Of a DNA stretch of 64,000 nucleotides, positions 1,846 to 62,833 are shown in pieces. Positions within the stretch are counted from its first letter, which is position 1, and each line of letters begins with the position of its first letter. Where the stretch lies: assembly GCA_013180625.2 (NCBI GenBank), contig SNVD02003226.1, positions 62,001 to 126,000 on the forward strand, read 5' to 3'. Position numbers and translations under genes: made by a program. Below the pieces are notes generated by a model, which did not search any database, was not told where the DNA came from, and saw only the letters and a program-made list of their open reading frames with translations. The stretch comes from Boswellia sacra (taxonomy: Eukaryota; Streptophyta; Magnoliopsida; Sapindales; Burseraceae).

Positions 1846-3260
1846 TGATAAGTGTCTATTTATATATCATTTTCATATCAATTCGTCCATGTTTCTTTGC
1901 TATATTCCTTGGTATTTTTATGTTTTTGTGTGGTTTTGATGTTTGTAGGAGTTTTGTAGCAACTTGCACAAAAATGGAGTAAAACCCTTCATTTTCACCT
2001 CTGCTAGTCAACCATCTTCTCGGATTTAATTGTATTGATATACAATGAACCCGATGACATATCATATACCGTTGAAAGCTCTCGAAGTCTACTTTTTGGA
2101 GAAATTTACGGTTTATGAATCCATTCAGTGTACCGAAAGTTGTAATCAAAACAGTGTGAGAAGTGTAGAAATGTAATTCCACACATCACTGTAGCATGTA
2201 TAATACGGGACACTGTAGCACGTTACTGTAGCAGAGTATTTAAACACATTTTAGGGTTTTATTTTCATAACTTGAAGAGGGGAGAACGTGGAAGAGGCTG
2301 CATCTTTGGATTTCTCTCATCTCTTGGAGTTCTTGAAGGAGATTGAAGCCTTGGAAAGAGGAAGAACTACAAATCCTAAGAGATTTCATCAAATTTGCTA
2401 AGTTTTTCCCTTTCCCTTTCATTTTCTGGAATTGTCTATGTATTGTATTGTATTTGTAGTGTGTCTAAATATGTGTAACTAAATCTGAATTGGTTGAGGG
2501 TGATTTCAAAGCCCTTGATATGGTTTTTGTAAGTTGATTGTGCAAGAAATTGTTATCCAATTCTCTAATTGAAGTTGCTTGTATTTTCCCATGTTTAATG
2601 CTTATGATTACTTGCTGATTGTATTTGGGTGGCCAACTAAATATAATCTGGATATTGTCTATTGCTAGACTAGAAATCTTGATCCGTAATTGTCTTGAAT
2701 TTCTAATCATTAGTAGCAAAATTGTGATCAGAGATTGCAATTGGAGAATATAACCTAAGTTAAATAATCCGAGCTTGTGTGTTTATTGCTTAGATCAACC
2801 TGTCTTTCTTTTCACAATGCATCCATTGAATTAAATTTAGAGAGCTTGTTCTAGGTTGTTTAATGGATAGAGATTAAATAAAGAGCCTGTTTTATTTAAC
2901 AACAAAGTAAGGAAAGATTGGGATAACAGAGCTTATTGTTATCTACGGTTGATAATTTCAATGGTGTAATTGGATGACAATTCTGTGATTCATTTGCAAA
3001 TCCATATCTTGTGGTAGAGAATAATCCCTTAACCAGATTTCTTTCATTGTGTATCTCTCAATTGATTTAACTTTGCATTGTATTATTCTTCATTTGCTTT
3101 CGTATTGAGTTTAGTTAATCAATCAACAAAACCCCCCCATTTATTCTGTTTTCGCTTTCAAATAACAAATTCAATTAGAATCAATCCTCGTGGGAACGAT
3201 ATCTTCCTCATCACTTTATTACTTGTGCGACTAGTATACTTGCTAGTTTCGAACGCACCA
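1846..3260 (+). repeat. 5' LTR of the first Athila-type element
   Basis: This 1415-nt LTR starts with TG and ends with CA, and is a near copy of 9651-11062. A family member also exists as a solo LTR at 19382-20799. The 3' part has the conserved phrase CCTCGTGGGAACGATATC, the family counterpart of CCTCGTGGATCGACCCC in the second Athila element. Confidence 0.95.
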
Positions 3261-3266
3261 AGTTTT

Positions 3267-3284
3267 TGGCGCCGTTGCCGGGGA
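3267..3284 (+). other. Primer-binding site, tRNA-Asp type
   Basis: TGGCGCCGTTGCCGGGGA, six bases after the LTR, is complementary to the 3' end of plant tRNA-Asp. This primer is typical of Athila and related plant gypsy elements. Confidence 0.85.
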
Positions 3285-3373
3285 TTGTTTTTCTAATCGA
3301 TTTGTTATTTTGTTTTCATTGTTGATTCATATTTTCTTTGTTTTTCTTTTCTGATTGTTTGTGTTTAGACAAC

Positions 3374-4265
3374 ATGGCAGTAAACTTCTATCAATTCAGT
3401 AGCGGATTTGAGCCACAAGTACCATGGAGAGTAAATGAGGTAAGCACTCCGAACATTGAACAACAACTTTCTGAGCTAACCTCTCTTGTGGAAAACATGG
3501 CTGTAGGAGATATGCAAAAATCTTATGAATGTGGGATATATTCTACGATGGAGCATCCAATCGACATGTATCCAAATTTACAAGAAGAATATATGGAACA
3601 AGCCAATGCCATGGGTGGATTTCCAGGACAAACGAGGCAATGGTATGATCCTTTCTCTAGCACTTACAATGCTGGATGGGAAGATCAACATAATTTCAGT
3701 TACTGGAATCATCAACCAATCACTCCAAATGTGATACCAAATCGGCCACAAAGGTTTCAATCAACCTAGAGTGCAGCAACCATTTCAAATGCAACCACCA
3801 CCAATGCCACATCCAGCACCGCAACCAGCTTCGCAAAACTCAGGTATGTCTCTCGAAGATATTGTTAATGCACTTGCCACTAACACAATGCAATTCCAGC
3901 AGGAAACTGGGGCAAGTATCCAAAACCTGGCAAATCAAATGGGAAAATTGGCTACTAGCATGAGCAAATTTGAGGGCCAAGACTTAGAAAAATTATCTTC
4001 TCAAACGGTGATCAATCCAAGAGAGACTGCTAGTGCAATAACTTCACGAAATGGAGAGCAATTAGATGTCTTGCCAAGGAAATCACAAACTGATGAAGGA
4101 GATGACACCACTTCCATCATGAACAAAACATTGACTTCTCAGGTAAATCCGATAACTCCCATTCCTTCATATGTTACTCCTTCACTTTTTCCTAGTAGAT
4201 TTGCAAAATCGAAGAAGGAGGAACAAGAACAGAAAATCTTGGAAACTTCTCCCAAAATTGAGTAA
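3374..4265 (+). pseudogene. Partial gag, capsid domain missing
   Basis: ATG at 3374 opens a 131-codon frame that ends at a TAG (3767-3769). The homologous reading continues from about 3750 in the next frame to 4265. The protein starts abruptly in what is normally the C-terminal half of Athila gag. A decayed knuckle (CGIYSTMEHPIDMYP, two of the zinc cysteines now Tyr) is followed by a Pro/Gln-rich tail. The approximately 150-residue Retrotrans_gag capsid region seen in the second element (38000-38375) is absent. Such a protein could not build a capsid, which supports a non-autonomous status for this element. Recognised by similarity in order and motifs to the second element's gag. Confidence 0.8.
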
Positions 4266-5374
4266 ATATACCACTTCTGGATGCTATCGAGCAAGTACCT
4301 TGTTATACAAAATGTCTCAAGGAGTTATGCACCAGCAAGAGAAAGTTAAAAGGAAATGAGAAAGTAAGTGTGGGGGAAAATGTTTCAGCTGTTTTACAAG
4401 GAAAAATTCCTCTGAAATATAAAGATTCAGGTACGTTCACCATTACATGCACCATTGGTAAAACTAAGTTTGAAAGAGCTACGTTTGATTTAGAAGCATT
4501 TATTAACATCATGCCATATTCTATTTATGCTTCTTTAAATCTTGGACCTTTTGTGGAAACTGGTATTACCATTCAACTTGCTGATCGTTCTAATGCATAT
4601 CCCAAGGGAGTTGTGGAAGATGTGCTTGTGCAGGTGAATCAATTGGTTTTCCTAGCAGACTTCTATGTTCTTGAAATGGAGGATGAGACATCTCTTAATC
4701 CAACACCAATTCTTTTGGGAGACCATTCTTGAAAACTGCTCGAACTAAGATTGATGTTCATGATGGCACTCTCACCATGGAATTCGATGGCGAGGTGATT
4801 CGTTTCAATATTTTTGAGACAATGAGGTACTCTAATGACTTACATTCTGTTTTTGCAGTTGATGTTATTGATTATTTGCCATAACAATGTTTTGAGTTAA
4901 CTCGCAAGAATGGAGTGGATGTTGCTATTAGTGAACACATAAGGATAGAAAGTTTCAAAGAACCAAGAAAGCTGATACAAGTGTCTAAAGAAGTGGAGGA
5001 AGCTGTGACAAGCTTGGATGAGACTATAGCTATCACCACAAATAGGTATGATGTTTCGTACATTGAATTGCCTTTATCTAATGAGAAACTTCTTCCTTTT
5101 GTGATGAAAGCCAATACCTTGGAGCTTAAGTCACTTTCCAGATCATTTGAATCATGGATTCTTGGGTGAGAATGATACTTTGCGAGTTACAATGGAAATG
5201 GGCCTTGCACGAATACAAGAAGATAAACTCGTCCGAATACTTACATATCACAAAATAGCTATTGAGTGGACAATTGTTGAAATCCAAGGCCCATCCATAT
5301 GCATTGACCGTATCTTGTTAGAAGAGGGATCCAAGCCCATTAGAGAAGCACAACAGAAATTGGATCCTCCATGA
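4262..5374 (+). pseudogene. Retropepsin region and start of RT region, broken
   Basis: In frame, 4262-4732 encodes an aspartic-protease-like segment. It has the catalytic-site phrase DLEAFINIMPYS, where the usual form is DLGAS, so the Gly after the Asp-Leu is changed, and a later PILLG flap-side motif. A 1-nt deletion near 4730 moves the reading to another frame, which continues to a TAA at 4881. After further shifts, 5147-5374 encodes the conserved lead-in to RT (LGENDTL, HKIAIEWTI, REAQQKLDPP). The frame then stops and no RT catalytic core follows. The element therefore lost RT, RNase H and integrase by deletion exactly where the downstream cassette begins. Confidence 0.8.
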
Positions 5375-5384
5375 TGGAACCAAC

Positions 5385-5433
5385 GTCGGGCTGAGGACGT
5401 TAAACCAAGCGCTTATTGGGAGGCAACCCAATG
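5385..5433 (+). promoter_or_regulatory. Conserved intercistronic motif with stem
   Basis: This segment contains GGACGTTAAACCA (5395-5407) followed by AGCGCTTATTGGGAGGCAACCCAAT. The TTGGG and CCCAA parts can pair around GGAGGCAA. From memory, the phrase GCGCTT...TGGGAGGCAACCCA recurs in many plant LTR elements. The same 13-mer recurs at 6403-6415. Here it sits between the pol remnant and the extra ORFs. The function is unknown; a role in downstream-ORF expression is inference. Confidence 0.5.
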
Positions 5434-5827
5434 TTTTTGAAAAAAAAAAGAAAAATCAAATGAGGTAATAATGATCGATTTTTGTGTCTCGAGGAGATTC
5501 TTTTCATAGGCCATCAAATTGATCAGGTTTTATCTCTCTTTGCCATCTGTCTCATTTGTTTTTATATTTTTTTTACTTGTTTTTGACTTTTTTTTTGATA
5601 TTGTGTTGTTATCTCTTTTATGTGTCTTTAGTTTCGTTTCTGCTCTTTTCTTTTCCTTTCTTTTGTTCAATTTGATTACTCTGTGCGTTGAGCTCATTTG
5701 TGCAGCAGCTTGTGGAAACATCCAAACGGAAGTTGAAGTCATTCGCCAAAGGTTTGAAACGTGCATATCTTGGAGAAAAACAAACCCGATCGCATTATCT
5801 GTAATATCTCTTCTTTTCTCCTCTTCA
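5434..5827. other. T-rich leader before the Cys-rich ORF
   Basis: This is a pyrimidine-rich stretch. An open frame from 5519 would encode only a Phe/Leu/Ser-rich string, which looks like translated poly-pyrimidine sequence rather than a real membrane domain. A possible 3' splice site (pyrimidine tract then TTTGTGCAG) ends at about 5704, and a possible donor (GAG|GTAATA) lies at about 5466. Splicing is not demonstrated. Confidence 0.35.
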
Positions 5828-6382
5828 ATGGATGCCGATATCTTTCTGTCGAACCTTCGTAAATATTTTCCTTCACTTCCTCATAATGCTGTGTTCAAAA
5901 TTTATAAAGTACGGATGACTAGACTTTGGGCGTTGATGCTCTTAAATGTGCCTGCTGATATCCGATGGCTTATCGAAGCCAAGGTGAGATTTTCAGGTGA
6001 GCCTGACATTAATCTCGCAAAATACATGCCTGGTCTAGGGAAAAGCTACTACGCCAAGAGGTGAAGAGCAAAAAGGTTACAAGTATGTTATAAATGTGCT
6101 AGATGGAATTGTAACCAGACTTGTCGTTCATTAGGTTTTGTGTCCAGGAATAGAGAAAATAAACTTTCATTTATTAAGAATGGTTTGAGTAATGAGTCGC
6201 TGGATAATGTTTTGTTAACTCTCGAGTCACATTCTTGTGGAATTGTTCAGCGTGAATTGCTTAATCTATGGACACAATTTCGTGATGAATTGCAGTGTTA
6301 TAGTCTAGGGAATCGGACTAACAACGACCCTGTTTGCCAGTTTATAAGAAAACTGGATGGGAAGCAAATCCCCGACTCATAG
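5828..6382 (+). pseudogene. Basic cysteine-rich ORF, carlavirus NABP-like (tentative)
   Basis: The reading from ATG 5828 spans 185 codons including the final stop, in one frame with a single internal TGA (6062-6064). The second element has CGA at this position. The N-terminal half (about 75 residues) is helical-looking. It is followed by GLGKSYYAKR, then RAKRLQ, and then a Cys cluster with spacing CX2CX4CX3C (CYKCARWNC plus one more Cys). The C-terminal half (about 80 residues) is Leu/Glu-rich and ends QFIRKLDG. The G-x-S-x-YA-basic-CxxC arrangement resembles the short nucleic-acid-binding proteins of carlaviruses, known as RNA-binding silencing suppressors. The Cys spacing differs and I could not run a profile search, so the match is tentative. 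A homologous relic occupies 41952-42302 in the second element, and in both it sits just upstream of a LOG-like ORF. Confidence 0.6.
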
Positions 6383-6402
6383 AAGGCGTTCAAGCCGTTA
6401 CT

Positions 6403-6415
6403 GGACGTTAAACCA
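6403..6415 (+). promoter_or_regulatory. Second copy of intercistronic 13-mer
   Basis: GGACGTTAAACCA is identical to 5395-5407 and begins 20 nt after the stop of the Cys-rich ORF. The second element has AGACGTAAAACCA (42323-42335) in the same place. The recurrence after successive ORFs suggests a function in expressing the next cistron. Confidence 0.45.
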
Positions 6416-6611
6416 GAGGAAGATGTGAGCCACAATCACAACTACTTGTATATTTGAATGTGTGTTGTTGTTGTCGAATTTTATTTCTTTATTGTTTCGT
6501 TTGATCTGATTATCAATGTTGTTTCTGTGTTGTTGTTGTTTGTTGATTTTGTTTGTTTTAATTTCAAGTTTTCTTTTTGACAAACCATATGACTACCCTA
6601 TGGCATAAGTA

Positions 6612-6812
6612 CACGTGGGAGACAAGTGTGGAGGTTTGTCAACCTCCACCGAAAGTGTATCTCTATTTTTTTATGCTTCACGTGGGAGACAAGTGTGGGG
6701 GTTTTGTCAACCCCCGCCGAAAGTGTATCTCCATTTTCCATGCTTCACGTGGGAGACAAGTGTGTAGGTTTTGTCAAACCTCGCCGAAAGCATATCTCAG
6801 TTTTTCAAATCT
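6612..6812 (+). repeat. Three 67-bp tandem repeats, each with a stem-loop
   Basis: Units begin at 6612, 6679 and 6746 with CACGTGGGAGACAAGTGTG. Each holds a hairpin: GGAGGTT-TGTC-AACCTCC, then GGGGGTT-TTGTC-AACCCCC, then AGGTTT-TGTC-AAACCT. The paired bases change together (A-T to G-C), which supports selection on RNA folding. A decayed fourth unit ends near 6870 (CCCCCACCGAAAGTATGTC). The array lies in the leader of the LOG-like ORF and also contains one G-box (CACGTG) per unit. The second element lacks it. Confidence 0.75.
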
Positions 6813-6995
6813 TGGAGCGATAAATCTGCATCGAGCAACCCCCACCGAAAGTATGTCCCCATGTGTCAAAATTTGAGAGTTTTATGGGTGTATATATACC
6901 TTCTGCATATTTTCATATGTCATTCCATAACCTGTCTTGCAATTGAAAAGCATAATATCTAACGTGTCTTACACAAGATTAGAGTACTTGTAGAA

Positions 6996-7647
6996 ATGGA
7001 GAAAACACCAATTCGGCGATTCCGCAATATATGCGTATTTTGCGGATCGCAATTTGGTACAGATGGAGAGTTTACCACAGCAGCTCTTGATCTTGGTAGG
7101 ACATTAGCTACGAGGGGTATTAATTTGATTTATGGAGGGGGTATTCTTGGGTTAATGGGGTGTGTGTCAACAGCTGCATCCCTAGGAGGGAGCAAAGTTC
7201 TCGGCATTATCCCTAAACCATTAGCTGTACGAGATATCGTAGGCAACACAATCGGGGAAGAGTTACAGGTCTCTAGCATGCATGAGCGTATTGCACATCT
7301 GGTTGTTAAGTCCGATGCATTTATAGCTTTGCCTGGTGGTTATGGTACATTAGAGGAGATATTTCAAATCACCTCTTGGGCACAGCTAAACATCCATCGG
7401 AAACCCATTGGTTTGTTAAATGTCAATAATTTTTTTTGATGGTTTGTTGTCCTTTCTTGATCAAGCTGTAGAAAAAAACTTCATCTCACCATCGGCGAGG
7501 CAAATCCTGGTTACAGCTTCAACTGCAGGGGAGTTAATTGATAAACTCCAAGAATTCGTCTATTTGCCTGATCCAACAACGGCTTGAATAGATTGGTTTG
7601 GAGAAGGCAATAAAAGGCGTAGACTGGATTTAACACTCCATCTGTAA
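6996..7647 (+). pseudogene. LOG-like cytokinin riboside 5'-monophosphate phosphoribohydrolase
   Basis: ATG 6996 opens a frame matching plant LOG proteins from residue 11 (ICVFCGS) onward. The nucleotide-binding GGG (YGGGILGLMG, 46-55), MHER (95-98) and PGGYGTLEE (113-121) are all present. Arg98 and Glu121 correspond to the catalytic pair of LOG enzymes, which release free cytokinin base from its riboside monophosphate. One extra T in a run of eight (7430-7437) shifts the frame. The homologous reading continues in the next frame to TAA at 7645-7647, with one more in-frame TGA at 7585-7587. Without the extra base the span is 651 nt, normal for LOG (about 215 residues). There is no intron, although host LOG genes have several, consistent with capture through RNA. 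It lies inside an LTR element after the Cys-rich ORF. It is broken now. Confidence 0.85.
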
Positions 7648-9637
7648 TCTCTATCTATCGGTTTGCTTTGTTTTTTTGTTTACTTTCTTTTTAGTGTGTT
7701 TATTTGAGATTTTTCATGTCATTTCTTTTGAGTTTTTTTTTCAGGTTATTTCTTTCGCCCCAGATAATATTTTCTAATCATGGCTTTTAGAGTGGTGGCC
7801 TAAAAAGTTTAATTCCTCTTGAAACGCATTCTGGATCTCTTCAATCCATAATGGCTGAATAAGGAGGCTAACTTCTAAACTTTTTAGACCCATTCTAACT
7901 GACTTGTTTTTGTTTGCTGGCTTGTTGGACTTTGTTATTTTATGAGTGAGTTTAGTTTTGTGTAATTTAGAGTTGTTGTGTGTTTTTGTCTATATGAGTT
8001 TCGATTCAGAAAAAAAACATTGTGGAAAAACCTGAGAATGGCAGAATATGGGGTTTCCTTAACTCTTGAAACGCATTCTCTCTAAATAAATCTGTAGTTT
8101 TTTTATTTTATGTTGTTTGAAGTGTCTTGTTTCTTGTTTTGTTCTTCATAATAAAGGTATATAGGCTGGAAACCTTAAGTCTGGGGGCTACTAGTCCTAA
8201 GGATTGTTGAAATATACAATCTTGACTCAGGTGAAACAACGCCACGTACCTCTTTTCTTGCATTTTGTGGGTCGATGATAAGATAATGATTGAATTAAGA
8301 ATAACTCTTGGAAAATGATAAATGATGCATGGATCTGTGTGCTTGAAATGTTTATTTGGTTTTCGCTTTGCTTTTGATTCCTTGCGCAACATTGAGCACT
8401 GAGCTATTATCACTGAGTTATTTGCTCACTTAGAGAAAGTTTATGTAATTTAAATGTTTCTTCAGATTTCAATGAATTCTAGAACTTGTTTGATGGTCAC
8501 TCGAGGCGAAATCCTAGACTGTGCAACATTTGGAAAATGATTTAGGCCATCTTTGGACCGTTTGAGCCTTAATAGCCAACCTTGACAGAAATTGATCCCT
8601 AGTTAACCCTTTGAGCCTTTGTAAGCCTTTTTCTTTGTTAACTCACTAAAAGATTTCCTAACCTCAAATGAATTTATTCCAAACAGTTTATCCTTACCTA
8701 TGAGCATGTAGATCGTTCACAATTAAATTTTGAGCTATGTTCTGGTTTTGGGAAGTTAGAGGAGGTTGGGATGTGTCATGAGCAATGCAAGTGAGTTCTA
8801 TTGTGTTTAAAAAAAAAAAAGAAAAAAAGAAAAAAGCCAATCTGTACTTATTGTCCACATACTTACACATTGGGGACAATGTGTTGTTTAAGTGTGGGGG
8901 AGGGGAAGTGTAGTAAAAAAAAAATTGATGAAAAAAAAAGAGAAAAAGAAAAAAAAGAAGAAGAGAAAGAGAAGAAAAAAATATTTATACCTTGAGTGTT
9001 CTTAAAAAGAATAAAACAACAAAGTGTGGGGGTGTAGTTTCTTTTGTGTTATAAAAAAATTAATAAAAATAGAGTTCGAGTGTTCTGAATAAGTTTGGGG
9101 GAGTCATTTGGTGAATAAGAATGAATTTTTTATGTCATGGGGTTGAGCTCTACATAATCTTGAATGATTTTATGTGTTTGTGAGTGATTTAAGCCTAATT
9201 ATTATCCCTTATCATACCTTCACCCAAGCCAAACGTTACAAGCTTAATAAAGTCCTACTTGATCCTTGGTGTTGTGCATGTCTACATTAGTGGAGAGTGA
9301 CTTGAAAAGCAGGCCTATGGAGTTCATTTATACACACATCTTCACTATTAAATATGATTCATTTTTATGCATAAACTCATCCGGGTTACAAGTGATTAGG
9401 TGAGAATGGCTCTACACACACACACTTGAGGAATTGAAGTGAAGCGAAACTAATCTTTCGGATAAAATTCTTGATCAAGTACATTATTTTGAAGTTTTCC
9501 TTGGGTTATAATTAAGTACAATCTTTGAGGCCTATTTGCAAGATGAAGCATTTGTGTGTTTTAATTTTTTATTGATTCTGTTTCGGTTTAGTTTTATTTC
9601 ATATTGTCGTAGTTGCTCGAGGACTAGCAAAGTCTAA
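7648..9637. other. Long non-coding 3' region of the first Athila-type element
   Basis: No ORF is credible. The region holds two CTTGAAACGCATTCT repeats (about 7819 and 8066), also present in the second element and the third fragment (about 43539 and 48131). It also holds several G-runs of the form AGTGTGGGGG (about 8891, 9023, 9636) and a purine-rich low-complexity tract (8922-8985). Long non-coding 3' regions are usual in Athila elements. Confidence 0.7.
8866..8883 (+). promoter_or_regulatory. Conserved hairpin CACATTG-GGGA-CAATGTG
   Basis: A perfect 7-bp stem with a GGGA loop lies 8 nt before the G-rich tract GTGTGGGGGAGGGG. The second element has AACATTG-AGGA-CAATGTT at 43392-43409 followed by GGTTGGGGGGG. 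The outer base pair changes from C-G to A-T without breaking the stem. It could mark a secondary polypurine-type signal or an RNA element; the function is unknown. Confidence 0.5.
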
Positions 9638-9650
9638 GTGTGGGGGAATT
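9638..9650 (+). other. Polypurine tract of the first Athila-type element
   Basis: GTGTGGGGGAATT directly abuts the TG of the 3' LTR, the position where plus-strand DNA synthesis is primed in LTR elements. Confidence 0.75.
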
Positions 9651-11062
9651 TGATAAGTGTCTATTTATATATCATTTTCATATCAATTCGTCCATGTTTC
9701 TTTGCTATATTCCTTGGTATTTTTATGTTTTTGTGTGGTTTTGATGTTTGTAGGAGTTTTGGAGCAACTTGCACAAAAATGGAGTAAAACCCTTCATTTT
9801 CACCTCTGCTAGTCAACCATCTTCTCGGATTTAATTGTATTGATATACAATGAACCCGATGACATATCATATACCGTTGAAAAGCTCTCGAAGTCTACTT
9901 TTTGGAGAAATTTACGGTTTATGAATCCATTCAGTGTACCGAAAGTTGTAATCAAAACAGTGTGAGAAGTGTAGAAATGTAATTCCACACATCACTGTAG
10001 CATGTATAATAAGGGACACTGTAGCACGTTACTGTATCAGAGTATTTAAACACATTTTAGGGTTTTATTTTCATAACTTGAAGAGGGGAGAACGTGGAGA
10101 GGCTGCATCTTTGGATTTCTCTCATCTCTTGGAGTTCTTGAAGGAGATTGAAGCCTTGGAAAGAGGAAGAACTACAAATCCTAAAGATTTCATCAAATTT
10201 GCTAAGTTTTCCCTTTCCCTTTCATTTTCTGGAATGTCTCCATATTGTATTGTATTTGTATACTGTCTAAATATGTGTAACTAAATCTGAATTGGTTGAG
10301 GGTGATTTCAAAGCCCTTGATATGGTTTTTGTGAATTGATTGTGCAAGGAATTGTTATCCAATTCTCTAATTGAAGTTGCTTGTATTTTCCCATGTTTAA
10401 TGCTTATGATTGCTTGCTGGATTGTATTTGGGTGGCCAACTGAATATAATCTGGATATTGTCTATTGCTAGACTAGAAATCTTGATCCGTAATTGTCTTG
10501 AATTTCTAATCATTAGTAGCAAAATTGTGATCAGAGATTGCAATTGGAGAATATAACCTAAGTTAAATAATCCGAGCTTGTGTGTTTATTGCTTAGATCA
10601 ACCTATCTTTCTTTTCATAATGCATCCATTGAATTAAATTTAGAGAGCTTGTTCTAGGTTGTTTAATGGATAGAGATTAAGTAAAGAACCTATTTTATTT
10701 AACAACAAAGTAAGGAAAGATTGAGATAACAGAGCTTATTGTTATCTACGGTTGATAACTTTAATGCTGTAATTAGATGACAATTCTGTGATTAATTTGC
10801 AAATCCATATCTTGTGGTAGAGAATAATCCCTTAACCAGATTTCTTTCATTGTGTATTTCTCAATTGATTTAACTTTGCATTGTATTATTCTTCATTTGC
10901 TTTCGTATTGAGTTTAGTTAATCAATCAACAAAATCCCCCATTTATTCTGTTTTCGCTTTCAAATAACAAATTCAATTAGAATCAATCCTCGTGGGAACG
11001 ATATCTTACTCATCACTTTATTACTTGTGCGACTAGTATACTTGCTAGTTTCGAACGCACCA
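9651..11062 (+). repeat. 3' LTR of the first Athila-type element
   Basis: 1412 nt, about 98% like 1846-3260 by eye. It ends GCACCA and is followed by the target duplication GTATT (11063-11067). Confidence 0.95.
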
Positions 11063-12704: not shown

Positions 12705-12786
12705 GTCCAAAATATAGGTCATTAGATATACCTGCAAAAGCCTAGATATTTGATATTGAATCTCTCTCTGGATTGCTTTGCTAAAA

Positions 12787-18116: not shown

Positions 18117-18249
18117 TTCACCCCTAGTAAAAGGGGTTGGATATAATTCCTTTAGAGCAAAATATCTAGTCTAAAGCAACTCATTGGCTAAGCCTGCACA
18201 GAGCCTTTATAATTGATACAGATTCCATCTCTTGATTGCTTTGCTAAAG

Positions 18250-18757
18250 ATGGACTTAGTAACAGCAACAAAGCCTCATGTAGTATGAGTTCCATATCCA
18301 TCTCAAGGTTATATTACTCCCTCGATGCAATTAGCCAAACTTTTTCACTCAAGAGATTTCCATGTAACCTTTGTCAACAATATGTACAATCACAAACGTT
18401 TAATTTGCTCCAGAGGACCAGACTACGTTAAGGGTCTACCGGATTTCCGGTTCCTCAAAACCATACTAGATGGATTGCCACTGTCTAATCACGATGCCAC
18501 ACATGATCCTCAGGAATTATGTCCTTCTATAGGGAAAAACTGCCTGGCCCCCTTCTTGGAGCTGCTACGTAAGTTGAACTCAACAGAAGCGCCACTGGTT
18601 AGTTGCGTAATCTCTGGTGGGTTCATGAGCTTTGCTATTAAGGCCGGGGAAATTCTAGGTATACAGGAGATTCAATTTTGCACTGCCTCAGCCTATGGTT
18701 TCATGGGATATCTGCAATATAGTGAACTTATTAACAAAGGCATAGTTCCATTTAGAG
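18250..18757 (+). pseudogene. UGT85 pseudogene, exon 1 only
   Basis: Exon 1 is 508 nt, the same length as in the two better copies, and closely resembles 12787-13294. It is dead in several ways. A TGA stands at codon 13 (18286-18288). The catalytic His21 is Tyr (QGYIT). The catalytic Asp is Gly (ISGGFM). The splice donor GT after the final AGAG is lost into a (TTA)n tract. No exon 2 is found on either side of the large element nest that starts about 530 bp downstream. Loss of both catalytic residues shows it was free of selection for some time. Its 5' flank shares the GATTGCTTTGCTAAA phrase with gene 1, indicating tandem duplication. Confidence 0.9.
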
Positions 18758-19292
18758 TTATTATTATTATTATTATTATTCAATTTTTTTGAATATTTTC
18801 CATTCTTTTCATTCCCCGAACTACTTTAGTTTCTACATATATAAAAGAGTGTAGGATTATTTCATTTTTGACAGGTGAGCCTGTTTAAAATGTTTATAAA
18901 AAAAATTTAAATTTAAATTAATATAAAATAATTATATATGAATATATATAAATGAAAATTATGAAACAACAATGGTTATTTGGTCAGTTGGTCGAACTTA
19001 TTCATATCGCTGACTTTAATCCTTCTCTCTCCCTTTTTATTTTGTTTCATTTATTATTATTTTTTTGGTTTTTGTTGGCGTGCACTAAAGAATTCTTATC
19101 GTTTTTTCACTTCTATGCTATCTTTTTTTTAAAAAAAAAATGATTCACTGTTTACATCATATCTGGTTTATCTAATCACGACCTCAAGGAGTTGTATCCA
19201 TTTAAATATTAAACTTGAATGTTCTGTTCTTAAATGTGGATTTAACTTAATTTGTGCTAACTTCTATTAATAACTTTTAGTAGCTTTCCAAA
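18758..19292. other. Remnant UGT85 intron
   Basis: This AT-rich DNA starts with a (TTA)n tract (18757-18780). Around 19258-19290 it shares an AACTTCT...TAATAACTT...TAGCTTTC phrase with the intron of gene 1 (about 13788-13815). The match ends at about 19292, where the retrotransposon nest begins. Confidence 0.55.
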
Positions 19293-36209: not shown

Positions 36210-37587
36210 TGATGAACACTTAAATATGCATATTTAATAAGAGCTTAATTCATCATATCAAATTAATAGTGTCATTAAATTCCTCAACTTAAGCAGATTT
36301 GTAGTCTTTACATCTTTTGAATTAACTTTCTCTTAATTTCGATTTTGATGTAGGTTCGGTTAATTGGGCATAACTTTTTATTTATGGATCAGAATAGTGC
36401 AAATCTTAATGTTTTGAAAAGCTGATTAAATTCTATACAAGATTGTATTTCACAAGTATCGGGCTCTTAGTAGACCAAAAATGGGCTTGAAGTGAACCCA
36501 TTAGCAGTTTCAGTGCAGTCTGACCATGCCTTAGTATTTTGACCATATTTCTCAAGATACGTATTCAAATTGTATAAATCAAGATGTTCTAGAAAGTTGA
36601 GAGAAATATCTACGACTTTTATGAAGACATGTGATTAAAATTCTCAATACTTCAATGTCAAAATCAGTGGTCAAATTCAGTTCACCTAATTAGCCCAATT
36701 GTCAAAGTTGGTGCATCTAATATTTGACAATTATTTCTTTGTAAATTGACAAGTTTGCCCTTAAATGTATCTATAAATAGAGGTGCCTTATGACCCATTA
36801 GGGCATCTTGGCCTTGGCTGGAATATCTTAGCCTTACTGGGATCTTGTATTGTGTTTCTCTCTTGTGTTTTTATGCTATTAATAAATCTTCTTTTTCTTG
36901 TAATTTGTTTCCTTTCTTTTATAATGTCTTTCTAATTTCTCTCTTGCTAAAGTGAAAGGGTGAAACCCTTGATATGAGAGTAAGGATTCTCTAACCCTTT
37001 AATAAATGCTTTAATAATCATAATCTTGTGTTGTTTATATGATTTATATTTATTTCTCTAATCAATCTTGACACCACTTATAAAGTGGAGGTCTTGATCC
37101 ATTGTCGACAATCCTTGGCACATCAAATGCTTGGATCTTTTCTAGATATCATATGGTTCTTCCTTACCGACATGAATCTAGTTAGGAACTTTGATTTGTT
37201 GTAGACATATGGAGATTGGCACATTGGATGCTTGAACCCATTTACAAGAAGTGGTATAAATATTGGTAACGAAGCAAATATAATTCATATAACTAAAATG
37301 GGTTGTTTATCCTTATTTGAAATATCAAGGGCGGATCCCCTAACCTTAACTTTCATTATTATTGTGTTAATTTCTCTTGTGTGATTCTCATTTATTGTTT
37401 ATGAACTTGTTCTTTACTATATTTGTTGATATTATCTTGTCATCTCTTTGAATCATTCATATCATATTTGCTTACTTTATAGCTTGTAGCGCTAAAATTC
37501 CCTTCCTCGTGGATCGACCCCGGTCTCACCAGGTTTATTACTTCGACACTCCTATACTTGGGAGACAATCCTTTTTCGGATGTGTCA
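36210..37587 (+). repeat. 5' LTR of the second Athila-type element
   Basis: 1378 nt. It has a TATA-like CTATAAATAG at about 36771 and the conserved U5 phrase CCTCGTGGATCGACCCC (about 37504). The primer site TGACGCCGTTGCCGAGGA at 37594-37611 fits tRNA-Asp with two mismatches. Confidence 0.92.
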
Positions 37588-37724
37588 AGTTTGTGACGCC
37601 GTTGCCGAGGAAGGTAAGAATTGGCGTGCAAAATTGTAAGTATTCTCTTCTTTCATTTTAGATCTCAATTTTTTTACTTTATTATGTGTTCATCTTTTCT
37701 TCTCTTTTCTTCTCTTTTTCTTGC

Positions 37725-39926
37725 ATGAAAATTTGGTCACGAACATCGAATGGTAGACTTGTTAGAAAAACATCGTCTTCCTTAGAAAACATAGCCAACA
37801 ATCTAGTGGAAAGGTTCACGGATGAAGGGGACTATCGTTCCTAACAAAATGATCAGAACCAACCAAGAACCCTTAGAGACTACATGAATCCGGTAAGGAC
37901 TAGTGCACTATCTTGTGTAATTTCTCCTCTAGATTCAATCCATTTTAATTTCAAGCCAAGTTTTGTTCGACTTCTACCCACCTTTCATGGCCTCGATATG
38001 GAGAACCCATATTCGCGCGTAAAACTCTTTGAAGAGGTATGTAACTCTTACACTGACCCAAATTGTAGCATAAACACCATTAGATTAAAGCTTTTTCCTT
38101 TTTCCTTAAAAGATAAAGCTAGAATATGGCTACAAAATTTGAGGTCGAATTCCATCAGTTCATGGGATGAGATGAAACAACAATTTTTGAAAAAATTTTT
38201 TCCTACCCATAGAACAAATTCTCTGAAAAGACAAATTTCCAATTTCACTCAAAAACAGGGGGAAACCCTTTACCATTGTTGGGATAGGTATAAGGAACTA
38301 CTTAATACCTGTCCTCACCATGGTTTTGAAACTTGGAGAATAGTTGCACACTTCTATGAAGGGTTAACATCTTAAGATAGGCAACTAGTAGAATTAATGT
38401 GTAATGGAGAATTTGGAGACAAAGACCCTGAGGAAGCAATTGACTTCTTAGATTCCTTGACAGAAAAGGCACAAAATTGGGACACTGCAGACACCTATGA
38501 GGTACCAAGTAAGGCCCCAAACCCTGACATCCAATAGAGGCATTTACAACCTTAGGGAAGACCATGACCTTCAAGCCAAATATGATCCCTAGTTAGAAAA
38601 GTCGAGGCTTTAGAGATGAAAAAGAGTGGTCAATTGAATTCTATTCAAGAAAATGTCTATAACATTTGTAATGATAATGACCATTCCACTGATGATTGCC
38701 CAACTTTGCCTGCCTTTAGGGAATGTCTCCATGAAGAAGCCAATGGCTTGGACACTTTCAAACGGCCAAATCACAATCCATGTTCACAAACTTACAATCC
38801 TGGTTGGAGAAATCATCCAAATTTTAGTTGGAAAAATGACCATCATGCACAATCTTTGCAAGTCCCTTTTCAAAACTCTCATGATCATGCATATTCTCCT
38901 CCTCCTAGGAATGACCTTGAAGAAACATTGCATTTATTTATTACAAAGCAAGAGACTTTCAATAGTCAAATTGCTTAAACATTAGCAAATTTGTCAGACA
39001 CTCTTGCAAAATTTGCATCTACATTTAGCATCCAAGAGAAAGGGAAATTTCCTTCTCCAACATTGCAAAACCCCAGAGATCAATCTAACTCAAATGTAAG
39101 GAATTCAAGTAACCATTATTTTGATCAAGCAAAATCAGTCACGACCCTTCGCAATGGTAAGGTTGTTGAAAAACACATTCCTAAACCTTGTGAGAAAGAA
39201 GAAGAATCAATCTCTAAAGGGCAGGAAGAGGTTGCTAAACCAACACCTAGTGAAGAAGCAACCAAATCCTCATCTGTGCCTCCATTTCCTCAAGCATTAG
39301 CTACACAAAAGAAGCCAACTCACAATTCTGAAATCTTTGAAATTTTTAAACAGGTAAAGGTCAACATTCCCTTGCTTAATGTGATCAAACAGGTACCTTC
39401 TTATGCAAAATTTTTGAAAGACTTGTGCACTGTGAAAAGGAAATTGAATGTGAAAAAGAAGGCCTTTCTAGCCGAGCAAGTAAGCGCTATTCTTCAAAAC
39501 AATAATACAGTGAAATATAAGGATCCAGTTTGTCCTTCAATTTCATGTGTTATTGGACACCATAAAATTGAACAAGCTTTACTTGATCTTGGTGCTAGTG
39601 TAAATTTGCTTCCATATTCGGTTTTTCATAAACTCAATCTAGGTGAGTTAAAACCGACTTCTGTGACTCTTTTGTTTGCTGATAGATCAATCAAAGTACC
39701 AAGAGGAATAGTAAAGGATGTGTTAGTTCAAGTCAATAAATTCATTTATCCAGTGGATTTTATTGTCTTGGACACACAATCAGTGGAGGTATGTAATTCA
39801 ATTCCTATCATTTTAGGGCATCCATTTCTAGCTACCTCTAATGCTTTGATTAATTGCAGGAATGGAGTCATGAAGCTATCATTAGGGAACATGACTTTGG
39901 AACTTAATGTTTTTAATATGTGCTAA
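37725..39926 (+). pseudogene. Athila-type gag-protease, broken
   Basis: ATG 37725 starts gag, and most of the protein is in a single frame. A TAA occurs at about 37842. The capsid (Retrotrans_gag) region runs from about 37960 to 38375 (LPTFHGLDMENPYS, ARIWLQNL, RFY/HFYEGL motifs). Two small indels fall around 38530-38600. The knuckle-like ICNDNDHSTDDC follows at about 38660, with the first pattern Cys replaced. The protease (39450-39900) has the intact site LLDLGASVNLLPYS and an IILGHPFL motif, so its catalytic centre looks undamaged. It stops at TAA 39924-39926. This capsid-bearing gag is what the first Athila element lacks. Confidence 0.87.
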
Positions 39927-40097
39927 AAACCACATGAAGAAGAAGAGGCCAATATGATTGAAACTATTGTGGAAGATCACATCCAAAAAGGGAGTTCTTC
40001 TGACCCTTTGGAAACTTGTTTAGTGAATTCATTAGAATCAAGTATGGAATTAGATTTTGATCTTTCTGATATATGTTCTTTATTGGATTGTGCATAG

Positions 40098-41949
40098 GTG
40101 ATGGAAAAAGGCTCAAAACCAAGATTCGAAGAATTGGGGCAAATGAATGAAAGCAAGGAAGAGGGAGCTCCCAAGTTAGAACTGAAGCCCTTACCTGAAG
40201 GACTGAAATATGCATACCTTGGGGAGAATCAGACATATTCGATGATAATATCTTCATCCCTCACAAGCGAGCAACAAGGTAAGTTGATACACGTACTTAA
40301 AAGGCATAAAAATGCAATCGGATGGACTTTAAAAGACATAAAAGGTATTAACCCTTTGATTTGTACACATAGAATACATCTAGAAGAAAATGACAAAACA
40401 TCCCAACAACCTCAAAGGAGATTAAATCCCCATATGAAAGAGGTGATTAGGGCTGAAGTTCTCAAACTACTTGATGTGGGAATTATCTACCCTATTTCTG
40501 ATAGTAAGTGGGTAAGCCCTACGCAAGTAATACATAAGAAATCTGGCATTACAGTAGTCAAAAATAAAAAAGGTGAATTATTGCCAACTTGAGTCTCATC
40601 TAGTTGGAGGATGTGCATTGATTATAGAAAATTAAATGCTGTCACCAGAAAAGACCATTTTCCCTTACCTTTCCTTGACCAAATTCTTTAAAGAGTAGCA
40701 GGGCACCCCTACTACTACTTTTTTTATGGATATTCAGGCTATTATCAAATTTTCATTGCACTCGAAGACCAAGAAAAGACCACATTCACGTGCCCCTTCG
40801 GCACTTTTGCATTTAGAAGAATGCCTTTTAGACTTTGCAATGCTCCAGCTACTTTTCAAAGATTCATGTTAAGTATTTTCAGTGATATGGTTGAGCATTG
40901 TTTTGAAGTTTCTATGGATGATTTAACTGTCTTTGGAAACTCTTTTGATGATTATCTTGAAAACTTAGAAAAAGTCTTAAAAAGGTGTGAAGAAAAAGGT
41001 CTTATTTTGAATTGGGAAAAATGCCATTATATGGTCACTTTGGGAATTGTCTTAGGTCATGTGGTGTCTTCTAAGGGAATTGAAGTGGACAAAGCAAAAG
41101 TGGAATTAATTTCCCATTTGCCTCCGCCAAAAACAGTCAAAGAAGTCTGTTCATTCTTAGGGCATGCTAGATTTTATAGGAGGTTCATAAGAAATTTCAG
41201 TGCTATATCTAAACCTCTTTGTAACCTCTTAATAAAAGACACCTCTTCTGAATGGACTCAAGAATGTCAAAATGCCTTTGATAAGTTAATTGGACTTTTA
41301 ACAACTGCTCCAATTATGCAATCTCCTAATTGGTCCTTGCTTTTTGAATTGATGTGTGATGCAAGTGACTATGCCGTTGGTGTTGTCTTAGGACAAAGAA
41401 AAGAAGGTAAGCTTATGTGATATACTATGCAAGTAAGACTTTAAATGATGCACAAATGAATTACACAATAACTGAAAAAGAACTACTTGCAGTAGTATTT
41501 GCATTGGACAAATTTCGATCATATTTAATCGGTTCTCCAACAATTGTTTAAACTGACCATGCAGTTGTGAGATATTTAATGTCTAAACAGGATGCAAAAC
41601 CTAGATTGATACGGTGGATCTTATTGCTCCAAGAATTCAACATCACAATAAAGGATAAGAAAGAAGCCGAAAATGTCGTTGCTGATCATCTTTCAAGACT
41701 AACGACAGAGACATTAATTGAAACTTCACCTATCAATGATTCTTTTCCTGATGAATTTTTATTTTTCGTTGCTGTTGTACCTTGGTTTGCTAACATTGTA
41801 AATTTTCTTGCAATAGGAAAAATGCCACCTCATTAGAATGCTCAAGACAAAAGAAAGTTTTTGACCGAGGTGAAAAATTTTTATTGAGATGACCCATATC
41901 TGTTCAAATATTGTCCAGATCAAATAATTAGAAGATGCATACCCGACAT
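40098..41949 (+). pseudogene. Athila-type RT and RNase H, broken
   Basis: The reading begins with the lead-in block (LGENQTYSMII, HKNAIGWTLKDIKGINP, QRRLNPHMKEV) and continues through RT. A stop at about 40590 is followed by CIDYRKLNAVTRKDHFPLP and a damaged stretch at about 40690-40740. From 40821 come PFRLCNAPATFQRFM and the active site MDDLTVFG. The F/YMDD-type first residue is Ser, but both Asp are kept. RNase H follows (LMCDASDYAVG, then after a shift at about 41420 EKELLAVVFALDKF and AENVVADHLSRL). The end reads DDPYLFKYCPDQIIRRCIPD, the first residues of the integrase zinc region, and is then cut off by the cassette junction at about 41950. Confidence 0.87.
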
Positions 41950-41951
41950 GA

Positions 41952-42302
41952 GGTATCGGAAAAAGCTCTTACGCCAAAAAGCGAAGAGCGAAAAGGTTAC
42001 AAGTTTGTCCCAAATATGCAAGATGGACTTGTAACCAGCGTTGTCGCTCCTTGGGATATTTGTCTAATAATCGAGAGGATAAACTATAGTTTATCAAGAA
42101 TGGACTGAGTAAGGAGTTTTTGGATGATATCTGAATAACTCTTGAGATGCATTCTTGTAGACTTGTGCAACGTGAAATTTTTAAACTGTGGACATAATTC
42201 TGAGATGAGTAAGAACACTATAGTCTTGGGAATCTGACTCAAAATGACCCTGCTTGCCAGTTTATAAGAAAACTGGATGGGAAGCATATCCCCAACTCAT
42301 AG
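41952..42302 (+). pseudogene. Relic of the basic Cys-rich ORF, second copy
   Basis: This piece is colinear with 6036-6382 of the first element, without frameshifts. It begins GIGKSSYAKKRRAKRLQV. The Cys cluster is reduced (the second Cys is Tyr). The shared C-terminal half ends QFIRKLDGKHIPNS. Five in-frame stops show decay by point mutation only. The N-terminal half is missing: the pol reading runs straight into this point, so a deletion joined the start of integrase to the middle of the ORF. It lies about 320 nt upstream of the second LOG-like ORF, the same order as in the first element. Confidence 0.75.
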
Positions 42303-42620
42303 AACATGTTTAAGCCGTTTCTAGACGTAAAACCAGAGGAAGATGTTAGCCACAGTCACAACTACCTGTACATATGCATGCGTGCCATCATTTTTGAATT
42401 TTAATGCCTTATAGCTGTCATTTTTGAATTTGTATCTTTTGTTTCACTTATGGTGTCTTTTTTCATCATCTTTTTTTGAATTTCTATGCATAATTGTCAA
42501 ATTTTTCAACAAGCAGCCGAGCTACCTATTTGGATGTCATCATTAGCACACCTTTTTACATTCCATAAGTACCACATCTCTTGTTCTCTTCTTCACACAT
42601 AGTTAGAGAGTTGCATAGAC

Positions 42621-43271
42621 ATGAAGGGAACTTCAAAATGTCGAATCCAAAGGATATGTGTATTCTGTAGATCTTGACCGGGTAAAAGTAAGGAGTTTGT
42701 AGAAGTAGTAAATTATCTTGATATGCTACTAGCTGAAAGAAAGATTCATGTGGTTTTTGGAGGAGGTAGCCTCGGGTTAATGGGTTGTGTATTAACAGCT
42801 GCACATGTAGGAGGTCGTCAAGTTTTAGGAGTTATTCCTAAAGCTTTTGCTATAGAAAGCATTGTTGGAAAAACGGTTGGACATGAGTTACAAGTCTCCT
42901 CTATGCATGAACGCATGGCACATATGCTCATCAATTCAGATGCCTTTATTGCTTTACCAGGTGGCTTTGGTACTCTTGAAGAAATTTTTCAAATTGCCTC
43001 TTGGGCCTAACTGAATCTCCATAAAAAACCCATAGGTTTGTTGAATGTCAAAAATTTCTTTGATCTTTTAATAAGTTTTGTTGATGCAGCTGTGGAACAA
43101 AATTTTATCCCTCATTCGGTGAGACAGATCCTTGTTTCTACCACTTCTGCTGGTGAGTTACTTGACAAATTACAAGCAGTTGAGTATGAACCTGACCCAG
43201 CTAGTACTCAAATTAATTGGGCAGGAGGGCAAAACAAAAAGTGCAAATTGGATCTGAATCTCCGTTTGTAA
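42621..43271 (+). pseudogene. LOG-like phosphoribohydrolase, second copy
   Basis: ATG 42621 to TAA 43269-43271 is 651 nt, the same length as the first copy's reading, with no frameshift. It keeps FGGGSLGLMG, MHER and PGGFGTLEE at the same positions, so the catalytic Arg and Glu are present. It carries TGA at 42675-42677 (just after ICVFCRS, where Gly is changed to Arg) and TAA at 43008-43010. By eye it is about 60% identical to the copy at 6996. The C-terminal part (residues about 130-216) is undamaged. Two divergent carriers with equal length and intact motifs suggest a long-term functional ORF in this retroelement lineage, now dead here. It is intronless, like the first copy. Confidence 0.85.
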
Positions 43272-44269: not shown

Positions 44270-44308
<39 letters not shown>

Positions 44309-44594: not shown

Positions 44595-44606
44595 GGTTGG
44601 GGGGTG

Positions 44607-45990
44607 TGATGAACACTTAAAATATGTATGCTTAATAAGAGCTTAATTCATTATATTGCATTAATAATGTCATTAAATTCCTCAACTTAAGCAGATTTGT
44701 AGTCTTTACATCTTTTGAATTAACTTTCTCTTAATTTCAGTTTTGATATAGGTTTGGCTAATTGGACATAACTTTCTATTTATAGATCATAATGATGCAA
44801 ATCTTAATGTTTTGGAAAGCTAAGTAAATTATCTACAAGATTGTATTCACAAGCATCATCAAATTCAAGCTCTTAATGGACCAAAAATAGGCTTGAAATG
44901 AACCCATCAGCAGTTTCAGCCCAGTTTGACCATGCCTCAGTATTTTAACCATATCTCTCAAGATATGTATTCAAATTGTATAAATCAAGACGTTCTAGAA
45001 AGATGAGAGAAATATCTACGATTTTCATGAAGACATGTGATTAAAATTCTCAACACGTAAATGTCACAATCGATGGTCAAAGTCGGTTCACCTAATTAGC
45101 CCAATTGTCAAAGTTAGTGCATCTAATATTTGATAATTATTCCTTTGTAAATTGACAAGTTTGCCCCTAAATTTATCTATAAATAGAGGTGCCTTGTCAC
45201 TCATTAGAGCATCTTGGCCTTCGCTGGAATATCTTGGCCTTGCTGGGATCTTGTATTGTGTTTCTCTCTTGTGTTTTTATGCTATTAATAAATCTTCTTT
45301 TTCTTGCAATTTGTTTCCTTTCTTTTATAATGTCTTTCTAATTTCTCTCTTGCTAAGTGAAAGGGTGAAACCCTTGATATGAGAATAAGGATTCTCTAAC
45401 CCTTTAACATGTGCTTAATAATCATAATCTTGTGTTGTTTATATGATTTATATTTATTTCTCTAATCAATCTTGACACCACTTGTAAAGTGGAGGTCTTG
45501 ATCTATTATCGACAATCCTTGGCACATCAAATACTTGGATCCTTTCTAGATGTCATATGGTTCTTCCTTACTGACATTAATCTAGTTAGGAACCTTAATT
45601 TGTTGTAGACATATGGAGATTGGCACATTGGATGCTTGAACCCATTTACAAGAAGTGGTATAAATATTGGTAACGAAGAAAATATAATTCATAAACTAAA
45701 ATAGGTTGTTTATTCTTATTTGAAATATCAAGGGCGGATCCCTTAACCTTAGCTTTCATTATTATTGTGTTGATTTCTCTTGTGTGATTCTCATTTATTG
45801 TTTACAAACTTGTTCTTACCTATATTTGTTGATATTATCTTGTCATCTCTTTGAATCATTCATATCATATTTGCTTACTTTATAGTTTGTAGCGCTAAAA
45901 TTCCCTTCCTCGTGGATCGACCCCAGTCTCACCGGGTTTATTACTTCGACACTCTTATACTTGGGAGACAATCCTTTTTCGGATGTGTCA
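44607..45990 (+). repeat. 3' LTR of the second Athila-type element
   Basis: 1384 nt, close to 36210-37587. It is preceded by the polypurine tract GGTTGGGGGGTG (44595-44606) and followed by the duplication CACAT. Confidence 0.92.
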
Positions 45991-62760: not shown

Positions 62761-62833
62761 TCAGAACTTGCAAGCTAAGTCTTCCCAAGTTTTTTCAGTT
62801 TGAATCCAGTACCTTTTATCTCTTTTACTAAAG

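What the first reader, a model, noticed from the sequence alone, without database searches (positions are those of the whole stretch)
5385..7647. Conserved two-ORF cassette: [Cys-rich ORF]-[LOG-like ORF]
Both Athila-type elements have the same two extra ORFs, same order, same strand, downstream of gag/pol where Athila normally keeps an env-like gene. They share intercistronic text too. The cassette looks like an exchangeable accessory module combining a possible defence-suppressing protein and a hormone-activating enzyme. This is the best candidate for an undescribed system in the window.
Basis: partly seen in the sequence, partly recalled or inferred. Interest (0 to 1): 0.88.

Follow-up and report, generated by a model that had tools for sequence, protein, structure and literature searches.

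The report
Jumping genes carrying virus-type zinc-finger gene
Two old, broken jumping genes in a plant genome carry the same pair of extra genes, one resembling a plant-virus silencing-suppressor protein and one resembling a plant-hormone enzyme with an altered active-site pocket, and relatives of both turn up in several rosid plants.

Summary
Two Ty3/gypsy (Athila-like) elements with unrelated LTRs carry, after pol, same order and strand, a cysteine-rich protein (CRP, 182 aa in relatives) and a LOG-like ORF. Both window copies are pseudogenes, but the ORFs diverged under purifying selection (dN/dS 0.21, 0.24; other frames 0.7-1.3). The CRP belongs with flexivirus nucleic-acid-binding CRPs: 36 of 39 relatives match Pfam Carla_C4, 35 of 39 Viral_NABP. 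A profile search finds 877 proteins (E<=1, best 120 listed); named ones are from Xanthoceras, Acer, Populus, Rhamnella. A stray contig, apparently plant (L001), has integrase, an intact CRP and no LOG, so the pair is not obligate. LOG in Citrus and Populus gypsy elements is already in print; I saw no report of the CRP, but key sources were out of reach. Of 91 LOG relatives compared, nearly all keep the catalytic Arg and Glu, yet 79 have lost both Lys100 and Glu125 of the adenine/prenyl pocket, so 'hormone-activating enzyme' is doubtful. Best reading: CRP is a nuclear nucleic-acid-binding helper, probably a silencing suppressor or transcription factor; LOG is a repurposed nucleotide hydrolase. 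Function is untested. New variant of a known kind.

The parts
1846..3260 (+). Element 1, 5' LTR (1415 bp), TSD GTATT just before it
3267..3284 (+). Element 1 primer binding site, 18 of 18 to the tRNA-Asp type recalled for Athila
   Evidence: tRNA type recalled
3374..5371 (+). Element 1 gag/protease/pre-RT remnant in several broken frames; RT, RNase H and integrase absent
   Evidence: gag part has no Pfam match above cut-off
5384..5430 (+). Post-pol noncoding motif (recalled from Athila elements, 28 of 35 bases); shares the 13-mer GGACGTTAAACCA with the post-CRP stretch
5831..6379 (+). Element 1 CRP (Carla_C4/Viral_NABP-type) pseudogene, in-frame stop at 6062
6310..6450 (+). Conserved stretch across the CRP stop codon, shared by both elements and L001; nucleotide element or read-through tail, undecided
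6612..6806 (+). 67-bp tandem repeat, 2.9 copies, between CRP and LOG
6996..7647 (+). Element 1 LOG-like pseudogene (Lysine_decarbox; R99 and PGGYGTLEE kept, K100->I, E125->Q); frame change near 7432-7439, stop 7585
9651..11062 (+). Element 1, 3' LTR (1412 bp), followed by TSD GTATT
36210..37587 (+). Element 2, 5' LTR (1378 bp), TSD CACAT just before it
37594..37611 (+). Element 2 primer binding site, 16 of 18 to the same tRNA-Asp type
37845..41947 (+). Element 2 gag (PF03732), protease, RT/RNase H (PF00078, PF17919) and start of integrase, broken frames
41952..42299 (+). Element 2 CRP remnant, N-terminal third missing, 5 in-frame stops
42300..42372 (+). Element 2 conserved post-CRP stretch
42621..43271 (+). 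Element 2 LOG-like pseudogene (K100->M, E125->Q), stops at 42675 and 43008
44607..45990 (+). Element 2, 3' LTR (1384 bp), followed by TSD CACAT

Best explanation
Shown by sequence: these are decayed members of two families of Athila-like Ty3/gypsy retrotransposons that carry, after pol where Athila elements often have another third ORF, a gene for a basic zinc-finger protein (182 aa in relatives) matching the flexivirus CRP/NABP families, followed by a LOG-like gene; one further copy (L001) has the CRP and no LOG. dN/dS well under 1 indicates that both genes were under selection before these copies decayed. Inferred: CRP binds nucleic acid and helps the element against host RNA silencing and/or activates transcription in the nucleus, as viral CRPs do. 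LOG is a phosphoribohydrolase of host-LOG ancestry that is optional beside the CRP (added later, or lost in L001); having lost the Lys100/Glu125 pair of its base pocket, it probably acts on a different N6-modified or unmodified nucleotide, or much more weakly on cytokinin nucleotides.
For: CRP family: Pfam Carla_C4 in 36 of 39 and Viral_NABP in 35 of 39 relatives, above the curated cut-offs for P0001; BFVD: none of 41 hits at E<=0.001, but all 20 named hits among the top 24 are flexivirus proteins (virus families partly recalled). Many relatives, often full length: 70 of 71 candidates, 877 of 2775 at E<=1; 107 of 150 held are 176-192 aa. Position after integrase: L001. Selection: dN/dS 0.21 (CRP, 110 codons) and 0.24 (LOG, 145 codons), other frames 0.72-1.3; against L001 CRP C-part 0.29 and 0.26. 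Co-occurrence with LOG: both window elements, plus three contig lengths of 2 kb or more shared exactly by a CRP and a LOG hit (mean 0.06 at other shifts). LOG pocket: R99 88 of 91, E122 89 of 91, K100 lost in 79 of 91, and none of those 79 keeps E125. Viral CRP function: passages of PMC12172455.
Against: No function was tested. 3 of 39 CRPs miss Carla_C4 and 4 miss Viral_NABP; in a second choice of 30 the matches are 26 and 24; 18 of 107 full-length CRPs miss the four-Cys pattern as I wrote it. The window C-terminal piece scores 21.9 bits, under the 23-bit cut-off, and the N-terminal piece matches nothing. The CRP model is weak (pLDDT 67.6, pTM 0.35). Contig-length matches over all lengths (4) do not stand out from shifts (mean 2.4, maximum 9). 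That the 89 database LOGs lie in retrotransposons is not shown for any of them directly; it is inferred from the tree, cluster sizes and the length matches. 11 of 91 keep the K/E pocket and may be ordinary LOGs. Canonical LOGs are represented by two Arabidopsis proteins only. Direction of CRP transfer between virus and element is not shown.
Confidence: 0.6

Rival explanations
1. CRP and LOG are passive passengers, host or viral gene pieces captured once, with no role for the element.
For: All four window copies are broken; gene capture by plant LTR elements is known (PMC7264820, first of three parts read).
Against: dN/dS 0.21 and 0.24 between families with unrelated LTRs; 107 of 150 held CRPs are of full length; catalytic LOG residues kept in 88-89 of 91.
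Confidence: 0.1
2. LOG works: it raises active cytokinin and keeps cells dividing, which favours transposition and passage to seed; CRP adds growth stimulation, as the Chrysanthemum virus B CRP does by causing hyperplasia.
For: LOG fold family and catalytic residues kept; 11 of 91 LOGs keep the canonical K/E pocket; CVB p12 described as a transcription factor that induces hyperplasia (cited in PMC12172455, passage).
Against: Those assays used AMP, not cytokinin nucleotides.
Confidence: 0.2
3. The shared cassette is there because families copied it from one another by template switching, so it is a modular unit that hops between element backbones.
For: Synonymous divergence lower in CRP and LOG than in protease (p 4e-5 and 0.003) and, between element 2 and L001, lower in CRP (dS 0.72) than in RNase H/integrase (1.34); gag/protease DNA shares only one 47-bp match.
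Against: The CRP N-part is saturated too, so DNA-level constraint could explain low CRP C-part divergence; overall DNA identity of CRP and RNase H/integrase between element 2 and L001 is not far apart (77% and 72%); L001 has CRP without LOG.
Confidence: 0.2

Closest known systems
Flexivirus cysteine-rich/nucleic-acid-binding proteins (Pfam Carla_C4 PF01623, Viral_NABP PF05515; carla-, allexi-, mandari-, viti-, trichovirus CRPs)
   Same: Basic cluster followed by a four-cysteine motif; small gene near the 3' end; Pfam matches in most relatives
   Different: Encoded in a Ty3/gypsy retrotransposon; has its own conserved C-terminal third; function untested
LONELY GUY (LOG) cytokinin riboside 5'-monophosphate phosphoribohydrolase (PF03641, TIGR00730)
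   Same: Same fold family; PGGxGTxxE and catalytic Arg/Glu kept in nearly all
   Different: Lys100 and Glu125 of the adenine/prenyl pocket both lost in 79 of 91; set separate from AtLOG3/AtLOG8 at 100/100 (only two canonical sequences)
YgdH/LOG domain in Citrus and Populus Ty3/gypsy elements (Steinbauerova 2011, not held; PMC9289625)
   Same: Very probably the same LOG ORF
   Different: Named there from a domain scan; the section read mentions no CRP partner or pocket change, but it names only some of its 15 domains and its supplement was not seen
Athila elements (OTA clade) with env-like or ORF1/Transposase_32 third ORF
   Same: Long LTRs, tRNA-Asp-type PBS (recalled as Athila's), third ORF in sense after pol
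   Different: CRP is the ORF that follows integrase in L001
Phalaenopsis Ty3/gypsy element with AlkB m6A demethylase (PMC9289625)
   Same: Plant Ty3/gypsy element with a gained gene of a kind also found in plant RNA viruses (viral AlkB recalled)
   Different: Different gene; there tested in vitro (abstract)

Membership tests
Athila-type Ty3/gypsy element | Two LTRs with short TSD | tested here: met
   5-bp TSDs GTATT and CACAT
Athila-type Ty3/gypsy element | gag, PR, RT, RH, INT in gypsy order | tested here: met
   Order held by element 2 plus L001 together; element 1 lacks RT-RH-INT, and protease matches in element 2 are under Pfam cut-off
Athila-type Ty3/gypsy element | Placed in the Athila clade by an RT tree | not tested
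   No reference set at hand; PBS type and no sign of an extra RNase H between RH and INT or after INT in L001 only point that way
Athila-type Ty3/gypsy element | Athila ORF1/Transposase_32 third ORF | tested here: not met
   Not between INT and CRP in L001; the Transposase_32 ORF at 33884-34672 lies outside element 2. Athila ORF-1 was found in only 16% of Athila elements (PMC6317226, passage), so it is not a required feature
Flexivirus CRP/NABP family (PF01623, PF05515) | Profile match above curated cut-off | tested here: met
   P0001 33.8 bits (cut-off 23) and 28.5 bits (20.9); 35 and 36 of 39 relatives match at E<=0.01. The window C-terminal piece alone: 21.9 bits, under cut-off
Flexivirus CRP/NABP family (PF01623, PF05515) | Basic cluster plus four-Cys zinc motif | tested here: met
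   By pattern, 93 and 89 of 107 full-length proteins; zinc binding itself not tested
Flexivirus CRP/NABP family (PF01623, PF05515) | Silencing suppression, nuclear entry, nucleic-acid binding | not testable with these tools
   Bench work
LOG enzyme | PGGxGTxxE with catalytic Arg99 and Glu122 | tested here: met
   R99 88 of 91, E122 89 of 91
LOG enzyme | Adenine/prenyl pocket Met96, His97, Lys100, Glu125, Trp129 | tested here: not met
   Lys100 kept in 12 of 91, Glu125 in 11 of 91, His97 in 47 of 91; Met96 77 and Trp129 90 of 91
LOG enzyme | Cytokinin nucleotide hydrolysis | not testable with these tools
   Bench work; the NCBIfam LOG equivalog cut-off (300 bits) was reached by 0 of 9, canonical-pocket rows included, so uninformative

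The most novel reading that the evidence does not exclude
A lineage of plant retrotransposons shares a virus-type silencing-suppressor gene with flexiviruses and, beside it, a hydrolase derived from LOG, whose base pocket switched once from cytokinin nucleotides to another N6-modified nucleotide (for example N6-methyl-AMP from RNA decay). Together they would form a counter-defence set comparable to AlkB in orchid elements, and the element lineage could be a source or sink of flexivirus CRP genes.
Probability: 0.2. Interest if true: 0.82.

Novelty: new variant of a known kind. Interest (0 to 1): 0.6.

Why it matters
The origin and function of most extra ORFs of plant retrotransposons are unknown (PMC7264820, PMC11728184). 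This one has a clear relation to a plant-virus protein family with known roles in silencing suppression, which gives a direct test of whether retrotransposons and RNA viruses share counter-defence genes. The linked loss of two pocket residues in a long-kept LOG makes a sharp biochemical prediction. It also warns that some LOG genes annotated in rosid genomes may be retrotransposon genes: the three Populus LOGL10 entries listed (P0101, P0119, P0134) have Leu at Lys100. Both ORFs (182 and about 216 codons) lie under the 250-codon limit used for extra ORFs in the survey PMC6317226 (passage), which may be one reason the CRP has been overlooked, if it has.

Tried and rejected
IMG/VR scans for CRP and LOG confirmed no relatives, and the post-CRP motif had 0 exact matches. 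The AlphaFold model of the CRP was too weak for fold matching and no PDB chain matches the CRP profile. Read-through of the CRP stop into a 22-codon tail: suggestive amino-acid conservation, and the 3 of 150 proteins that run past the stop with this tail agree, but codon-position bias over 13 variable columns is not significant (p 0.10) and RNA folding is unremarkable (z -0.16, 0.88, -0.83). DNA-level constraint at the CRP 3' end: third-position differences in the last 30 codons against the first 86 give p 0.18, 0.048 and 0.076. Both left open. Recent swap of the cassette between the two window elements: rejected on divergence. Direction of CRP transfer: no viral sequences were at hand, so not attempted. 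Contig-length matching used 70 CRP and 72 of 120 listed LOG rows (the 48 dropped lie on contigs over 600 kb). The tree used 83 of 93 rows (Reevesia, Diplodiscus and Populus thinned to four each). The LOG set was 89 of 120 listed hits (length 205-245; 5784 hits in all) plus two window pieces. A1 is 39 of 70 CRPs, A2 my choice of 30 of 150.
Full report
What was claimed and what is there. The finding says that two Athila-type elements share a cassette of a Cys-rich ORF and a LOG-like ORF. Both elements are real. Element 1 runs from 1846 to 11062 and element 2 from 36210 to 45990; each has two LTRs, a TSD (GTATT, CACAT) and a tRNA-Asp-type primer site (18 of 18 and 16 of 18 bases; type recalled). 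LTR divergence is 0.020 and 0.074, so element 2 probably inserted earlier. Their LTRs show no meaningful similarity and gag/protease share one 47-bp DNA match, so they are different families.

Element 1 is a deletion derivative. Its coding region stops before RT and continues with the post-pol motif at 5384-5430. Element 2 keeps gag (PF03732), protease, RT and RNase H, and breaks off in integrase at about 41947, close to the CRP remnant. All four cassette ORFs are broken in the ways given in the observation check.

The Cys-rich ORF. The piece 6065-6379 scores 21.9 bits for Viral_NABP, just under the cut-off of 23; the piece 5831-6061 matches no family. A search with the first piece returned 70 proteins of 71 candidates, many of 181-184 aa. 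Of 39 aligned, 36 match Carla_C4 and 35 Viral_NABP at E<=0.01; the first, P0001, is above both curated cut-offs. In my second choice, 30 of 150, the counts are 26 and 24. A profile search gave 877 proteins at E<=1 of 2775 candidates, best 120 listed. The named ones in that list come from Xanthoceras and Acer, Populus, and Rhamnella, that is from Sapindales, Malpighiales and Rosales, all rosids (Acer recalled); most rows have no name. One cluster has 566 members. The mean column identity of A1 is 70%. The structure model is poor, and its BFVD search gave no hit at E<=0.001. All 20 named hits among the top 24 of 41 are flexivirus proteins (virus families partly recalled), which agrees with the profile result but is not independent proof.

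The LOG ORF. It matches Lysine_decarbox and TIGR00730, with Arabidopsis LOG3 (2a33) as best solved relative. Among 89 database relatives of 205-245 aa plus the two window pieces, the catalytic Arg99 is kept in 88 of 91 and Glu122 in 89 of 91 (numbering of CgLOG, PMC4979012, passages read). Lys100 is I, L or M in 79 of 91, and none of those 79 keeps Glu125, whereas 11 of the 12 Lys rows keep Glu125. In CgLOG, Lys100 is in the adenine site and both residues are in the proposed prenyl site. Alanine at the corresponding Lys abolished AMP hydrolysis in the second C. glutamicum LOG (PMC5379747, passages read). On a quick tree without these two columns the fewest changes are 2 (Lys) and 1 (Glu). The set is separate from AtLOG3/AtLOG8 with support 100/100. 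Seven Xanthoceras and four unnamed Lys rows branch near its base; the twelfth Lys row, P0106, does not. So the enzyme core was kept and the base pocket changed. Two cautions: the LOG list was ranked by likeness to an element LOG, so it under-samples ordinary plant LOGs; and that these database LOGs lie in retrotransposons is inferred, not seen.

Selection. Between the two elements, dN/dS is 0.21 for CRP (110 codons; other frames 1.15 and 0.98) and 0.24 for LOG (145 codons; other frames 0.72 and 1.30). CRP C-part against L001 gives 0.29 and 0.26. These are pairwise estimates without intervals, and decay after insertion pulls them up.

Are the two ORFs a pair? Both window elements have both. Among CRP and LOG hits, three contig lengths of 2 kb or more coincide exactly (8723, 4511 and 2128; mean 0.06 at shifted lengths), though over all lengths the four coincidences do not stand out (mean 2.4, maximum 9). 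Against an obligate pair: L001, a 3330-bp contig filed under a Candidatus Nomurabacteria MAG but holding a Ty3/gypsy-type integrase (rve and H2C2; 70% identical to element 2 over 121 residues), has an intact 182-aa CRP 204 bases after the integrase stop and no LOG in the 983 bases that follow, where a 43-base match to sequence after element 2's LOG already appears. That L001 is plant contamination is my inference, and LOG may have been lost there rather than never gained.

A shared stretch across the CRP stop. From about 6310 to 6450 the DNA is similar in all three copies. In the 14-codon window at 6326 the third-position differences are 1, 1 and 2, but over the last 30 codons against the first 86 the difference is only marginal (p 0.18, 0.048, 0.076). 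The 22 codons after the stop read alike in all three, and 3 of 150 database CRPs run on into the same tail, but the codon-position test is not significant (p 0.10). It may be an RNA or DNA signal or a read-through tail. A 13-base word in it also occurs in the post-pol motif of element 1.

Cassette exchange. Synonymous divergence is higher in protease than in CRP or LOG, and higher in RNase H/integrase (dS 1.34, 83 codons) than in CRP (0.72) between element 2 and L001, as exchange would predict. But the N-part of CRP is saturated while its C-part is not (p 1e-4), so local DNA constraint is a possible cause for CRP. I leave exchange open.

What is known. LOG (YgdH) domains in Ty3/gypsy consensus sequences of two Citrus species and Populus are stated in PMC9289625 (one section and passages read), citing Steinbauerova 2011 (not held). 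For the CRP, searches in the held library for LTR retrotransposon with carlavirus and nucleic acid binding protein (0), for the Pfam names and accessions (2 papers, glyoxalase work by title), and for extra-ORF papers gave no report in what I saw. This does not show absence from print: the 2011 paper and all supplementary files were out of reach, PMC9289625 names in the section read only some of its 15 domains, and PMC11728184 cites a catalogue of almost 4000 extra ORFs that I did not see. PMC7264820 (first of three parts), PMC11728184 and PMC11963269 (passages) describe other extra ORFs. PMC6317226 (passages) predicted extra ORFs of at least 250 codons.

How it probably works. Viral CRPs are described as silencing suppressors and pathogenicity factors, and one as a transcription factor causing hyperplasia (PMC12172455, passages including part of the abstract, and one section). 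By family likeness the element CRP would enter the nucleus, bind nucleic acid and protect or promote element RNA; this is inference. LOG would hydrolyse a nucleotide monophosphate; the lost pocket pair makes ordinary cytokinin activation uncertain. Whether the two act together is unknown.

Noticed in passing
window 6310-6450; 42230-42372; L001 2275-2417: Conserved stretch across the CRP stop codon with an in-frame tail after the stop; 3 of 150 database CRPs run on into the same tail.
   Followed up: partly
L001 (DAIEQH010000041.1): A contig filed under a Candidatus Nomurabacteria MAG carries a Ty3/gypsy-type integrase and CRP gene: apparent plant contamination of the MAG.
   Followed up: partly
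window 19382-20799: Solo LTR of the element 1 family (87% identity), flanked by TTAAG on both sides.
   Followed up: partly
window 33884-34672: ORF with Transposase_32 (PF20167), a known Athila third-ORF domain, just upstream of element 2 but outside its LTRs.
   Followed up: no
window 12777-13336, 18240-18799, 62824-63383: Three related gene pieces (70-80% alike) that look like plant UDP-glycosyltransferase genes (recalled, no profile run), with the elements lying among them.
   Followed up: no
window 23403-24353: Imperfect direct repeats of 86-236 bp in AT-rich DNA.
   Followed up: no
window 6612-6806: 67-bp tandem repeat (2.9 copies) between CRP and LOG of element 1, not seen in element 2's shorter spacer.
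   Followed up: no
window 47635-52511: Further direct and inverted copies of the element 2 LTR and other repeats, a retrotransposon cluster.
   Followed up: no
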